Of a DNA stretch of 45,427 nt, positions 12,658 to 45,427 are shown one piece after another. The notes below the pieces were generated by a model. That model was not told where the DNA came from, made no database searches, and saw nothing but the letters and a program-made list of their open reading frames with translations. Each line of letters begins with the position of its first letter. Position 1 is the first letter of the stretch. A program made the translations under genes and the position numbers. The DNA comes from Cyanobacteriota bacterium (GTDB taxonomy: Bacteria > Cyanobacteriota > Vampirovibrionia > LMEP-6097): assembly GCA_027618255.1 (NCBI GenBank), contig JAQCFG010000010.1, positions 1 through 45,427 of the forward strand, in the 5' to 3' direction.

Positions 12658-12765
12658 ACTTCCTGCGAAAGTCCCCTTTATCTTTACTAATGGAACTAGT
12701 GCTTCGCACCGTTCCGCCCTTTTTTATGTCGATATCACTAACCAAACTTCGTTTTGCAGGATGTC
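12657..12765 (+). repeat. Full-length palindromic TA element, type A (109 bp)
   Basis: Flanked by TA on both sides (12655-12656 and 12766-12767). The left end gacttcctgcgaaagtcc and the right end gttttgcaggatgtc are terminal inverted repeats. The inner stem ggaactagtgcttcgcaccg and following bases, then a T6 tract (near 12720-12725), form an intrinsic-terminator-like structure in the direction of cysK. The right end holds a second palindrome. The left TA lies inside the cysK stop codon. Confidence 0.9.
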
Positions 12766-12825
12766 TATTGGGAGTCTGACATAACTGACAGCACTGTTTA
12801 TCACGTTATCTACTTGTATCACTTG

Positions 12826-14678: not shown

Positions 14679-15339
14679 TAAGATAGCTATCATTGGAGCT
14701 GCTGGAGTCGGTAAAACGACTCTCTTAAATTCTCTATTTGAAGATTCAACTATCTCAGTTAAGTATACAAAAATAGAAGAAGTAGTTCGTAAGCTCTGTG
14801 CTGAAAGAGGGTTTGAGAATCCTTATTCGATTACGGGCGATCTTGATCAATTTCGCCATGATGTTTTAATGCGACAAATTTATGAAGAGAATAAAGCAGA
14901 GAGTTTTATATCTGATAGGTCCACTATTGATGCTTGGGCTTACTACATGCGCTGGTCTTGGAATACTAGCACCGTTGAAAAGACTGAAGAGTTTTATCAA
15001 GCTGCTTATAAGCAAGCTCAGCAATATGATCAAATAATTTATTTGCCCATTATGTTTGAGGAGAGGAATCCTGCAAACCAAAGTTTTGCTAGTGATGCCG
15101 ACACAAAAAAGGTCGGGACCATGCAAAGCATGAGTCCCGCTAGTAAAAAACAATGGAATTTTCGCGAGAATCCTATACAAGATGATGGCTTTCGCTGGAA
15201 TAATGCTATCTATCAAAAACAAATTGATAGACTTTTGAGATCAATAATCTATGATTGGGGTTTCAGTGATAAAGTATATGAAATCAAGTCAGAGACTATA
15301 GACCATAGGCTGCAAGAGCTGTTTGATTTGGGTTTTTAG
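14659..15339 (+). CDS. P-loop ATPase/kinase-like protein (AAA_28/NadR-like) with translated repeat
   Basis: 226 residues from TTG 14659, overlapping ilvB by 20 bases; no better start exists before the P-loop. Walker A is GAAGVGKTT (14-22). A DRSTIDAWAYY segment (about 86) and a DDGFRWNNAIYQKQIDR segment near the C-terminus resemble the NadR-type kinase/AAA_28 family. The substrate is unknown. Residues about 136-172 are encoded by a full 109-bp palindromic TA element that stays in frame; it lies just before the DDGFRW motif. Without it the protein would be about 189 aa. Confidence 0.85.
   Translation: MIGNRFNKIAIIGAAGVGKTTLLNSLFEDSTISVKYTKIEEVVRKLCAERGFENPYSITGDLDQFRHDVLMRQIYEENKAESFISDRSTIDAWAYYMRWSWNTSTVEKTEEFYQAAYKQAQQYDQIIYLPIMFEERNPANQSFASDADTKKVGTMQSMSPASKKQWNFRENPIQDDGFRWNNAIYQKQIDRLLRSIIYDWGFSDKVYEIKSETIDHRLQELFDLGF
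15065..15173 (-). repeat. Palindromic TA element inside a coding sequence
   Basis: Aligns without gaps over 109 positions to the intergenic copy at 42939-43047, with about 79 identical bases by hand count, including a 15-base exact run (cacaaaaaaggtcgg). The right flank is TA (15174-15175). The left flank has decayed to GA. 109 + 2 = 111 bp = 37 codons, and there is no stop in the host frame. The T-tract orientation opposes the host gene. Confidence 0.88.
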
Positions 15340-38072: not shown

Positions 38073-38143
38073 TGACAGGCAAAACATTGATCGTCATTCC
38101 GTTCAATCCTCCGAGAGCAAGTTCTCGACTTTCACTATATTAG
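38073..38143 (-). repeat. Dispersed repeat D, copy 2 (inverted)
   Basis: Read on the minus strand, tagtgaaagtcgagaacttg and the gaggattgaacggaatgac core match 8833-8904. It abuts the palindromic element starting at 38143, which suggests nested insertion. Confidence 0.8.
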
Positions 38144-38251
38144 AGTTCCTGCAAAAGTCCCCTTTATCTTTACTAACGGAACTAGTGCTTCGCACCGTTC
38201 CGACCTTTTTTATGTCGACATCACTAGCAAAACTTTGTTTTGCAGGATGTC
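38143..38251 (+). repeat. Full-length palindromic TA element, type A (109 bp)
   Basis: Begins after TA (38141-38142) with gagttcctgcaaaagtcc. The central cggaactagtgcttcgcacc stem is followed by T6, then gacatcactagcaaaac and gttttgcaggatgtc. It is nearly identical to 12657-12765. The right flank is AA, perhaps because the second copy starts 5 bp later. Confidence 0.9.
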
Positions 38252-38256
38252 AATTA

Positions 38257-41638: not shown

Positions 41639-42829
41639 CTATAATAACCCAGATTGATAGTCAGATTCAGCATCAAGATCAATATCACTGTCTTGAATGG
41701 TTTCAAGAACCGAGTTACATGCCTTGAGGATAATTGGGTTCAATTTGCCTCTGGCACTGACTTTCAATACTCTTTTCTCACTAACACGAAGGACATTATC
41801 ACCCCATATTTTAATCAAATAATCTATATCATTAAGATCATCACCTATTAAATCATCTAAGTTAGATTCAATAGGAATGGCGATTTCCATTGCCGTAGGG
41901 TCTCCATTGATATTGACAATTAGTTGAGAATTACTCTCTTTATAATAAATTAAAATATGAATCTTGTTAAAGTTGATGGTCTTAATAGATATCGAAGCTA
42001 TCGAATCAAACTGCTCTTCATCTTCACTATTACCATCTTGGCGACTTTGATCTTCTTTGGTTTCTTCTTCATCTTCTTCAAACTCTTCATCAGGCTCCGC
42101 AAATTCAAACTCAAAAGGTATTGGTAAAAACAACTGCAAAAGAGGTACTAAGTAATTACTGTAATCAAGATTGATTTCTCTTATTTGAAAAACAATATTG
42201 TGCAAGATTTTCTTTAACTCAGGTTCATCAGAAAACTCTTCTTGTTTAGATTCAAACAAATCCAGCAATTGATCCCTGTCCATATCGGCGACACTCTCAT
42301 CAATCCCAAATAAAGTAGCCAGACTATCAAAGCTTCTCATATTACCAACTCCAAAGGATTCAAGCATTCCTCTGGCATATTCATTGATGAGCTTCATTCC
42401 ATCTTCTCCGCGCACCAAGGCGTCACCAAGTTTGGTAATGTTGTCTACATGATCTTCATAAGTTGGTTGCAAGCGCTTTGGAATATGTGGCTTTACCTTG
42501 CGCGGGTTGATCGCCCGACCAGCTTGTACTTGCACAGTTGGTTTTGGTGGCTTGGCTTTAGCTTTTTTATTGATAATCTGAATATTTGATTTTTGCTCAA
42601 GCTTGGCAACAAGGATTGGATTTTTGGCTCGCAAGTCAAAATCGTTATTCACTTTACTAGTATCCGCTTGAAGTGATTGTGCTGTTTGTGAATCAGAGTT
42701 TGCTTTATAAAGTGAATTATTGTTAGTTTGTTTCGGTTCAAGCTTTTCTGATTTTTGACTTAAGTCAAAAACATGTGGTTTTGGATCGTTATTTGGCAAA
42801 CCCTGGTTCGGGTTAATGTTTTCAGCCAT
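41639..42829 (-). CDS. Hypothetical acidic protein upstream of rimM
   Basis: 396 residues from ATG 42829; a TTG at 42853 is also possible, but the promoter-like TATACA 8 nt before 42829 favours the later start. Residues 1-110 are polar, disordered and basic. Residues 110-245 are mostly helical. A strongly acidic stretch (EPDEEFEEDEEETKEDQS, about 248-265) is followed by a beta-rich domain. The gene ends 4 bp before rimM, so it belongs to the rimM-trpF operon. Function unknown. Confidence 0.7.
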   Translation of the reverse strand: MAENINPNQGLPNNDPKPHVFDLSQKSEKLEPKQTNNNSLYKANSDSQTAQSLQADTSKVNNDFDLRAKNPILVAKLEQKSNIQIINKKAKAKPPKPTVQVQAGRAINPRKVKPHIPKRLQPTYEDHVDNITKLGDALVRGEDGMKLINEYARGMLESFGVGNMRSFDSLATLFGIDESVADMDRDQLLDLFESKQEEFSDEPELKKILHNIVFQIREINLDYSNYLVPLLQLFLPIPFEFEFAEPDEEFEEDEEETKEDQSRQDGNSEDEEQFDSIASISIKTINFNKIHILIYYKESNSQLIVNINGDPTAMEIAIPIESNLDDLIGDDLNDIDYLIKIWGDNVLRVSEKRVLKVSARGKLNPIILKACNSVLETIQDSDIDLDAESDYQSGLL

Positions 42830-42938
42830 ATTATCAATGTATATTATTAGCAAGGATAAGCCCTTAGCTAATGAACAATTCTAGCGATATTATTCCACAA
42901 TAACCAAGTCTTAACCAAATTATGTTCATTTATTAATA

Positions 42939-43047
42939 GACATCCTGCAAAACATAGTTTTGCAAGTGATGTCGGCACAAAAAAGGTCGGAACGGTGCAA
43001 AGCACTAGTTCCGTTAGTAAAGATAAAGAGGACAGTCGCAGTGTATC
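42939..43047 (-). repeat. Full-length palindromic TA element, type A (109 bp, best-preserved flanks)
   Basis: TA at 42937-42938 and 43048-43049. The left arm gacatcctgcaaaac / gttttgcaagtgatgtc is a hairpin. The central cggaacggtgcaaagcacta gttccg forms another. The right end is the inverted counterpart of gacttcctgc, somewhat decayed. The T-tract orientation is toward the minus-strand gene at 42829. It aligns gap-free with the coding copy at 15065. Confidence 0.92.
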
Positions 43048-43052
43048 TAATG

Positions 43053-43078
43053 TAGACCTGTTTCAAATCAAAACAGAT
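43053..43078 (+). repeat. Fragment of a type B element left end
   Basis: tagacctgtttcaaatcaaa plus acag resembles the left end of the element at 34468. Only about 26 bp can be matched. It lies just upstream of the gene at 43105. Confidence 0.5.
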
Positions 43079-43104
43079 ACAAAATACAGCAAAGAAGATA
43101 AGTC

Positions 43105-44061
43105 ATGGCACAAACCGGAGCCACACCTGCCATTAGTGCAGTAAATAGCCAAACGATAGTAACAACAGCAGCTGCTGCTGCTGCACCAGAGGCTAGTGGC
43201 AGCAAAAAGAAAGGTGTCAGTCTTGATGATATAGCTGGAGAATTAATTGATCCTGGAGAATTAATTGATCCAAGAACAGGTAGGAAATCACAACTTGCTG
43301 CTAGATTTGGAGACACCACGCTTGGTACAAATCCAATTAACCTCAAAAGACGAATTGGTAGAGCCGTAAATGGTAATGGTGTACCGAATAAGCTCACAAC
43401 AAAAACAGTTATACCAGACTTTAGTAATCCATTTGGCGGCACTGTAAACCCGCGTGCACTTGATGAACAATTATTGGCATCAGGTCTCAATCTGGCAGCG
43501 CTTGGTAGTCAATCATTTCCACCATTCTTTCCAAGCTTTGGCGGTCAAGGGAGTGTTGGTGGTGGACCAAGCTCAGGTGGTGATAAAGGTGGCTCAGGTA
43601 AAAGCAAAGACAGAAGTAGTTCTGGTAGCGGTGGATCAAGAGGCGGTTCTTCAGGGTCTAGTGATAGTACGGGAGCTAGTGAAGCGCAGCTTGCTATTGC
43701 AAGAGAAGCTGAACTCAAGGGACGATTAGACGCAAGCAAAGAAAGTATCTCTGAAACATACATTGAAAAAAGAAATGCTGATCCAAAGATAGAAACAAAT
43801 AATGACAGTACTCCTAAAGAACCGGCAGCAGAATATTTAAAGCAAGAACTAAAGACCAAATTACAACCAAAAACAGGGGAAGACTTAGGCGAGGCTGTTG
43901 ACAAACTAATACAAGATCTAGAAAGATCACCACTGACTGATGACGGTAGAAAACAAATGATCCAAGATTTTATACAAGAAAGAGGTTTAAGACCAGAACA
44001 AGCCAAACAGTTAACTGCGGATTTGGAAAATTCAGCTTTGACAAATTTAACTATTAGTTAG
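43105..44061 (+). CDS. Low-complexity Gly/Ser-rich protein, first of a four-gene cluster
   Basis: 318 residues, not recognised. There is a basic disordered N-terminus and an internal tandem GELIDP-GELIDP (about 46-57). SFPPFFPSFGGQGSVGGG leads into a long Gly/Ser linker (about 145-195), and a helical C-terminus ends in a region (ERSPLTDDGRKQMIQDFIQE and on) that looks like a folded three-helix domain. There is no classical signal peptide. Three more small genes follow in the same direction with 59, 3 and -1 bp spacing, so they are probably one operon. Confidence 0.7.
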   Translation: MAQTGATPAISAVNSQTIVTTAAAAAAPEASGSKKKGVSLDDIAGELIDPGELIDPRTGRKSQLAARFGDTTLGTNPINLKRRIGRAVNGNGVPNKLTTKTVIPDFSNPFGGTVNPRALDEQLLASGLNLAALGSQSFPPFFPSFGGQGSVGGGPSSGGDKGGSGKSKDRSSSGSGGSRGGSSGSSDSTGASEAQLAIAREAELKGRLDASKESISETYIEKRNADPKIETNNDSTPKEPAAEYLKQELKTKLQPKTGEDLGEAVDKLIQDLERSPLTDDGRKQMIQDFIQERGLRPEQAKQLTADLENSALTNLTIS

Positions 44062-44120
44062 CATAACCATTTCTTAACTTATATATGCATCAATAGTTAC
44101 AGAATCTAAGGAGATTTGAT

Positions 44121-44576
44121 ATGGCATTAGGTGCAGCAAGTAATCCAAGTAGTAGACAAAGAGACTTAAGTCTCAATAGTGTAGTTGCGCAGCGCTTTGG
44201 TGTTGCTGATAATAAGCAAACTATACAAGAATTAGCAGATCAAACTGTTGCAAATAATTTCACCTCACCACTAAGTCGTAATTCACAAATTGATCCAAAT
44301 CAATCATTTCTAGCTAAATTCATGGAAGAATCTTTTGAAAGAGCACGTAAACAAATGCAATCACAGACATGGTTTGCAATAGCCCAACCAGCCGTAGAAC
44401 TTGGCAAAGAATTGATTGCTGGTATCGGCAGCCTAGCTAAGGGTGGTTCAAATAAAGACAAAGAAACTAAAGAAACAGATGAAGACAAAAAGAAAGAAGA
44501 AGCTGAGAAATTATTAGCAAAGAATGATGCTAAAGAAGCTAAGAAGAATGAAGAAGCAAAAAGGGCAACAGGGTAA
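44121..44576 (+). CDS. Hypothetical protein, second of the cluster
   Basis: 151 residues, not recognised, with a good aaggag ribosome site (44108-44113). It contains SVVAQRFGVADNKQTIQELA (about 21-40), which resembles the AARFGD segment of the first protein. A hydrophobic helix follows (WFAIAQPAVELGKELIAGIG, about 82-101), then a charged Lys/Glu tail (KETDEDKKKEEAEKLLAK). The hydrophobic helix and charged tail could be a membrane or filament interaction. No known family. Confidence 0.65.
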   Translation: MALGAASNPSSRQRDLSLNSVVAQRFGVADNKQTIQELADQTVANNFTSPLSRNSQIDPNQSFLAKFMEESFERARKQMQSQTWFAIAQPAVELGKELIAGIGSLAKGGSNKDKETKETDEDKKKEEAEKLLAKNDAKEAKKNEEAKRATG

Positions 44577-44579
44577 ACA

Positions 44580-44861
44580 ATGTCAGGGCAATCACTACCA
44601 GAAATGCGTAAAATCGCACTAGAACTTAGTATTAGTACTGAACGCACTGGACCTGGTGAAACTCCATTAGCTCCAACACGTGCCAATAATCCTTTAACAG
44701 CACTTGTCGCCAATTTTGGTCAAGGAGTAAGACCAGAATCTAAGGCAGTCACCAACAACCTATCATCCACAAGCTTTAAACCCAATGGAAAGGATGCAAG
44801 CCTCGCAAGTTTAAATGGCATATTTGATTTTATGGATGGTAATGAGGAGATGTTTGGATAA
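44580..44861 (+). CDS. Hypothetical 93-aa protein, third of the cluster
   Basis: Not recognised. It starts 3 bp after the preceding stop. MSGQSLPEMRKIALELSIST, then NPLTALVANFGQGVRPESKA, ends with a short acidic FDFMDGNEEMFG tail. No signal peptide or membrane helix. Its stop TAA shares an A with the start codon of the next gene (TAATG), so the two are translationally coupled. Confidence 0.6.
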   Translation: MSGQSLPEMRKIALELSISTERTGPGETPLAPTRANNPLTALVANFGQGVRPESKAVTNNLSSTSFKPNGKDASLASLNGIFDFMDGNEEMFG

Positions 44862-45427
44862 TGATAGGAAGATTTTCACCAAGACCTGGTTCTAGTAGTG
44901 CTGCACAATACGCTATAGCATCTATAGGAATTAAGATTGATGATTATAGTGGTAGAGGTTTTGGTGTAAAAGGAAGACCTTATTTACCACCAGTAAATTC
45001 ATTTTATGGTGTAGCAAATCCAGCTTTGGGTTATGCTTTAGGAGCTGCAAATTCATTAATTAAAAGCCTTGCCAACATTTCAAGTCCAAGCCCAAGTTCT
45101 AACCCGCAAGAAGACACATATGCAGCAAATGATTCAGGAGCCAATTTGGCAAGCTCTGAGTCAGATGAAGAGACCTTAACTGATTTGGAAAGGCTTGTTA
45201 AAGAACAAGACAAATATAAAAAAGCTGCTGATGCGAAGAAGAAAGAATTAGAAGCGAAGAAAAAAGATTTACCACAAGAAGATGATCCAGCGGCTAGTAT
45301 TGAAATTGAAAATATAAATGAACAAATTGAAAAAATAGAAGAAGAACAAAAAGCATACAACAAGAAAGTCAACGAAACCCTTGAAAAGGCTACAGAATCA
45401 ATCAATGCAAACAAAAAAGAAGGCGAA
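44861..45427 (+). CDS. Hypothetical protein, fourth of the cluster (partial, runs off the window)
   Basis: ATG at 44861 and open for 189 codons to the end of the window. The N-terminus is MIGRFSPRPGSSSAAQYAIA, and the middle is GRGFGVKGRPYLPPVNSFYG followed by a small hydrophobic patch (NPALGYALGAANSLI). From about residue 105 it is a highly charged coiled coil (EEQKAYNKKVNETLEKATES and on). Function unknown; the C-terminus is missing. The one-base overlap with the preceding stop and consistent codon use support it. Confidence 0.7.
   Translation, partial: MIGRFSPRPGSSSAAQYAIASIGIKIDDYSGRGFGVKGRPYLPPVNSFYGVANPALGYALGAANSLIKSLANISSPSPSSNPQEDTYAANDSGANLASSESDEETLTDLERLVKEQDKYKKAADAKKKELEAKKKDLPQEDDPAASIEIENINEQIEKIEEEQKAYNKKVNETLEKATESINANKKEGE

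What the first reader, a model, noticed from the sequence alone, without database searches (positions are those of the whole stretch)
43105..45427. A four-gene cluster of low-complexity proteins with no recognised family
Four small genes are packed with 59, 3 and -1 bp spacing. They encode a Gly/Ser-linker protein, a hydrophobic-helix plus charged-tail protein, a 93-aa protein and a coiled-coil protein that continues off the window. Repeated short motifs (RFG in the first two, NFGQG in the third) hint at common ancestry or mutual binding. This is the best candidate in the window for an undescribed complex, for example a surface or filament system.
Basis: inference. Interest (0 to 1): 0.6.

Follow-up and report, generated by a model that had tools for sequence, protein, structure and literature searches.

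The report
Fast-evolving four-gene cluster, Melainabacteria genus
Four adjacent genes in a probably marine relative of cyanobacteria encode mostly unstructured and coiled-coil proteins that are kept together as a set but change quickly; they match no known family and may be exported out of the cell, though this is unproven.

Summary
In detail: four ORFs at 43105-45427 with spacings of 59, 3 and -1 bp, and no Pfam, PHROG or NCBIfam match. They are real genes: the same order occurs in a second species of the genus and, split over two contigs, in a third, with frames intact and dN/dS about 0.5 against 0.05-0.11 for flanking genes. The missing downstream sequence was found: gene 4 ends on contig C59 (about 273 aa) and abuts a convergent DUF433 gene, then nuoJ and nuoK, so no known system is revealed. 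The cluster sits antisense between two genes that are adjacent in two other genera. In two further genera, genes of similar style occupy the same place, but homology is unproven. The RFG/NFGQG idea fails: the motifs are not conserved and the four proteins show no detectable kinship. The proteins are partly disordered or coiled coil, lack evident Sec signals and membrane helices, and are almost cysteine-free (2 of 4253 residues). My preferred but unproven reading is export to the surface or outside, possibly by one of two flagellar-type export sets these genomes carry. A cytoplasmic scaffold is nearly as likely.

The parts
43105..44061 (+). Gene 1, 318 aa: mostly disordered, Gly/Ser-rich middle, helical C-terminal part; best conserved block about residues 101-143
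44121..44576 (+). Gene 2, 151 aa: polar N-terminus, weakly hydrophobic (not membrane-spanning) helical segment, Lys/Glu-rich tail
44580..44861 (+). Gene 3, 93 aa: small protein with a conserved FGxGxRPE stretch
44861..45427 (+). Gene 4, first 189 aa; the rest (82 aa) is on G000:C59:1-249, about 273 aa in all; disordered first ~97 residues, coiled-coil hairpin, small helical C-terminal part (model made on the G001 ortholog)
42931..43043 (.). 113-bp hairpin-forming repeat inserted between the divergent 404-aa gene and gene 1; absent in G001; not part of the conserved cluster
41639..42853 (-). Flank, not part of the cluster: 404-aa gene of unknown family ahead of rimM and trpF; marks the conserved place of the cluster in the family

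Best explanation
A lineage-restricted, fast-evolving four-gene operon of Candidatus Melainabacteria. It makes four mutually unrelated proteins that are largely disordered or coiled coil, nearly free of cysteine, and without evident Sec signals. Shown: the genes are real, kept in order, and under purifying selection about 4-10 times weaker than their neighbours. Inferred: they are co-transcribed; the proteins are exported by a Sec-independent route, most plausibly a flagellar-type (type III) export apparatus; and they act outside the cell as an accessory surface structure or in contact with other cells, with the coiled-coil hairpin of gene 4 as the structural part and genes 1-3 as flexible partners.
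For: Same order and frames in three species; dN/dS 0.45-0.55 against 0.05-0.11 for neighbours, a pattern common in exposed proteins; 2 cysteines in 4253 residues against 0.92% in 34 other window proteins and 0.39% in hypothetical ones; N-terminal 25 residues rich in S, T, P, Q, N (0.40), like the genome's flagellar export substrates (0.37) and unlike its enzymes (0.24); disordered start and coiled coil in gene 4, disorder in gene 1; no membrane helix by hydropathy; two flagellar-type export sets in the genomes.
Against: No secretion was tested. Low cysteine and polar N-termini are also usual in disordered cytoplasmic proteins, and the pooled orthologs are not independent, so the p-values are optimistic. 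The cluster is not linked to either export set in genus g1. In genera g2 and g5 both export sets occur but the cluster is not at this place. Fast evolution can be mere weak constraint on disordered protein.
Confidence: 0.36

Rival explanations
1. A cytoplasmic scaffold or adaptor complex: disordered and coiled-coil proteins that bind each other or a cell component (cytoskeleton, membrane face, nucleoid) and never leave the cell.
For: No Sec signal is evident; conserved stretches inside disordered regions look like binding segments; operon-like spacing; fast evolution is usual for disordered scaffolds (general knowledge).
Against: Cysteine is scarcer than in hypothetical soluble proteins of the same window; no known cytoplasmic partner or fold was found.
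Confidence: 0.32
2. Drifting lineage-specific orphan genes with little function, kept by chance or as cargo of a recent insertion between DUF433 and the 404-aa gene.
For: Genes 1 and 4 found only in genus g1 by profile over 289 genomes of the class; the flanks are adjacent without the cluster in g2 and g5; weak constraint.
Against: Order, frames and start-stop packing are intact over three species and dN/dS against G001 is clearly below 1; genes of similar style hold the same place in G004 and G005.
Confidence: 0.15
3. A remnant of a phage or another mobile element (virion or tail proteins).
For: Weak PHROG hits to virion, attachment and tape-measure families at E 0.0056-0.022, in low-complexity or coiled-coil stretches.
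Against: Hits are at chance level for such sequence; no capsid, terminase, portal or tail gene was recognised in or beside the cluster; no relative of genes 1 or 4 in viral contigs, nor of gene 4 in phages or plasmids.
Confidence: 0.04

Closest known systems
Substrates of flagellar-type / type III export (axial proteins, translocators)
   Same: No evident Sec signal, polar N-termini, almost no cysteine, disorder plus coiled coil, fast evolution
   Different: No sequence or family match to any known substrate; not encoded beside an export apparatus or a recognised chaperone; export not shown
Taxonomically restricted orphan operons of disordered proteins
   Same: Narrow distribution, no family, weak constraint
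   Different: Four genes stay in strict order over three species, and genes of similar style hold the same place in two sister genera

Membership tests
Type III / flagellar export substrates | Exported in a way that depends on the export apparatus | not testable with these tools
   needs a secretion assay
Type III / flagellar export substrates | Sequence or profile match to a known substrate family | tested here: not met
   no significant match in Pfam, PHROGs or NCBIfam; PDB profile hits only to designed or coiled-coil chains and weak linker hits
Type III / flagellar export substrates | Host genome carries a flagellar-type export apparatus | tested here: met
   two copies each of FlhA, FliP and FliF types in G000
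Type III / flagellar export substrates | Gene linkage to the apparatus or to a chaperone | tested here: not met
   cluster flanked by the 404-aa/rimM/trpF genes and DUF433/nuoJ/nuoK; linkage is usual but not obligatory, so this lowers the claim without excluding it
Type III / flagellar export substrates | Polar, disordered N-terminus without Sec signal | tested here: inconclusive
   composition fits, but disordered cytoplasmic proteins fit as well; Sec signals judged by reading and hydropathy only
   hhalign probabilities 0.1-1.9% for the three pairs run; shuffle tests on all six pairs show no excess consistent over the three species; RFG not conserved
Phage or virion proteins | Relatives in viral genomes or phage hallmark genes nearby | tested here: not met

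The most novel reading that the evidence does not exclude
The cluster encodes external or translocated proteins of the second flagellar-type export set (fliE-fliF-x-fliH, fliPQR, flhA), a flagellum-derived machine of these non-photosynthetic relatives of cyanobacteria, and its rapid change reflects contact with other cells.
Probability: 0.12. Interest if true: 0.75.

Novelty: new member of a known kind. Interest (0 to 1): 0.36.

Why it matters
Little is known of how uncultured Melainabacteria of open waters meet other cells. A conserved but fast-changing set of Sec-less proteins, in genomes that carry two flagellar-type export sets, gives named targets for testing whether one of those sets is a secretion system. 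If the proteins stay in the cell, the cluster is one more lineage-specific operon of disordered proteins.

Tried and rejected
Shared ancestry of the four proteins: rejected. Downstream genes naming a system: DUF433, nuoJ, nuoK and an aminotransferase gene, none informative. Viral, phage or plasmid origin: no match. G006 hit to gene 1 at E = 4e-4: a Gly/Asp-rich linker in a 1696-aa protein that by reading looks like a glycoside hydrolase, rejected. Hits in G276 and G226 at E = 2e-4 and 1.5e-5 cover linker or coiled-coil parts of the profiles in long ORFs and were not followed up. Relaxase_C hit of gene 4 (E 0.0019, below the curated cut-off) and Mu Gam hit of the last G004 gene: rejected as coiled-coil noise. 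Fold search of the gene 4 model against the PDB: nothing at E <= 0.001. Sequence homology of the G004 cluster to the window cluster: the best gene 2 pair has p = 0.003 among 72 comparisons, not significant after correction. Papers: no report of a type III secretion system in Melainabacteria found in the held library.

Full report
Setting. The window is the whole of contig C10 of a 1.99-Mb, 96%-complete assembly. That SI037 stands for Saanich Inlet is my own knowledge, so the marine habitat is inferred. The window stops because the contig stops.

Observation. The four ORFs, their lengths and their spacings (59, 3, -1 bp) are as stated. No Pfam, PHROG or NCBIfam family reaches significance. The genes are not chance ORFs: G001 carries the same four in the same order with intact frames, and G002 carries gene 1 at the end of one contig and genes 2-4 at the end of another, beside the same flanks. 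Against G001, dN/dS is 0.45-0.55 for the four genes, but 0.11, 0.08, 0.08, 0.05, 0.11 and 0.05 for the 404-aa gene, rimM, trpF, DUF433, nuoJ and nuoK. They are constrained, but about 4-10 times more loosely. Values against G002 are near saturation and were not used.

The missing end. Gene 4 continues on contig C59:1-249. Comparison with G001 suggests that only about two codons lie between the contigs, giving about 273 aa. Its stop abuts the stop of a convergent DUF433 gene, as in G001 and (within about 11 bp) G002; in G005 a different coiled-coil gene stops 8 bp from DUF433. Then come nuoJ, nuoK and an aminotransferase gene; the names nuoJ and nuoK rest on reading the sequences. The cluster therefore has exactly four genes in this genus, and its surroundings look like housekeeping genes.

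Place and history. In G006 (genus g5) and G003 (genus g2) DUF433, the 404-aa gene and rimM follow each other directly (match positions in G007 and G008 agree). In genus g1 the cluster lies between DUF433 and the 404-aa gene, on the opposite strand. In G004 (g3) five genes of similar style (about 404, 266, 192, 125 and 567 aa) start divergently from the 404-aa gene. In G005 (g4) a coiled-coil gene ends convergently at DUF433. The last genes of G004 and G005 match each other (E = 1e-4 for a single comparison; shuffle p = 0.003). Between g1 and G004 no sequence match survives correction. So place and style are shared by three genera, while homology across genera is plausible but unproven. Profile searches over 289 genomes of the class find genes 1 and 4 only in g1, apart from one weak linker or coiled-coil hit each. 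Whether the cluster was gained in g1/g3/g4 or lost in g2/g5 is open.

The proteins. AlphaFold2 on three-sequence alignments gives gene 4 (G001 ortholog) a disordered first 97 residues, a helical hairpin (99-138, 144-182) and a small helical tail, with no PDB fold match at E <= 0.001. Gene 1 is mostly disordered with C-terminal helices. The disordered start of gene 4 and residues 101-143 of gene 1 are among the best conserved stretches, a pattern often seen in binding segments. Gene 2 has no membrane helix by hydropathy. The RFG/NFGQG argument fails: the motifs are not kept between species, shared tripeptides are near chance, and the four proteins show no consistent mutual similarity.

Hints of export. 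Cysteine is almost absent: 2 in 4253 residues over five genomes, against 0.92% in 34 other window proteins and 0.39% in ten hypothetical ones. The first 25 residues are rich in S, T, P, Q and N (0.40), like the genome's flagellar substrates (0.37) and unlike its enzymes (0.24). Both are properties of Sec-independent exported proteins, but also of disordered proteins in general, so they shift the odds only moderately. Both comparisons pool orthologs, which are not independent, and the control set was chosen by me from this window.

An export route. Searches for FHIPEP, FliP and YscJ/FliF show two copies of each in nearly every genome of the family. One set sits with flgB- and flgC-type genes, fliE, fliH and a fliI-type ATPase (L085); flgB and flgC are named by reading. 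The other has fliE, a FliF with a weaker C-terminal match, an unassigned 124-aa gene and fliH (L084), with fliP, fliQ and fliR elsewhere (L087). Both FlhA-type proteins score best against the FlhA model, below its cut-off. Which flhA goes with which set, and whether the second set is a flagellum or a secretion system, was not determined. Over the class, family f4 has a single fliP while f1, f3, f8 and f9 usually have two. Published work describes Melainabacteria as flagellated or as carrying incomplete flagellar gene sets (PMC3787301, PMC4040986). The cluster is not linked to either set, so the connection is a hypothesis only.

Judgement. Their function is open. I put export at 0.36, a cytoplasmic scaffold at 0.32, drifting orphan genes at 0.15, a phage remnant at 0.04, and leave the rest to causes not thought of.

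Noticed in passing
L084:10062-13881, L087:5805-7996, L066 and L068 (FlhA-type genes), L085:6003-10838, L086:4824-5818: Nearly every genome of the family carries two flagellar-type export sets (two FlhA, FliP and FliF types). Family f4 has one fliP and f1, f3, f8, f9 usually two. The second set has fliE-fliF-(124-aa gene)-fliH beside ATP synthase genes; whether it is a flagellum or a secretion system is open.
   Followed up: partly
window 42931-43043; further copies at 38135-38256, 12663-12769, 15068-15147: A hairpin-forming interspersed repeat of about 110 bp with 25 further matches in the genome. The copy before gene 1 is a clean 113-bp insertion relative to G001 and folds better than shuffles (z = -4).
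   Followed up: partly
window 42854-43104 and L020:9481-9618: Apart from the inserted repeat, the intergenic stretch between the 404-aa gene and gene 1 is nearly identical in G000 and G001, although the four cluster proteins are only 58-68% identical.
   Followed up: no
L048:11547-13353 and L046:11596-12072: Small helical hypothetical proteins (165, 98, 208 aa in G006; 158 aa in G003) near fliE-fliF of the second export set; the 165- and 98-aa proteins look like paralogs by eye.
   Followed up: no
L069:16788-19844: Next to a FlhA-type gene in G006, a 793-aa protein that by reading has flagellin-like ends and a large repeat-rich insert, and a 192-aa protein with a near-identical start.
   Followed up: no
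L068:4027-9441, L088:480-5147, L021:678-2873: Very large hypothetical proteins (1804, 1555, 731 aa) in G001 with polar N-termini and no evident Sec signal; the first lies beside a FlhA-type gene and has no NCBIfam match.
   Followed up: no
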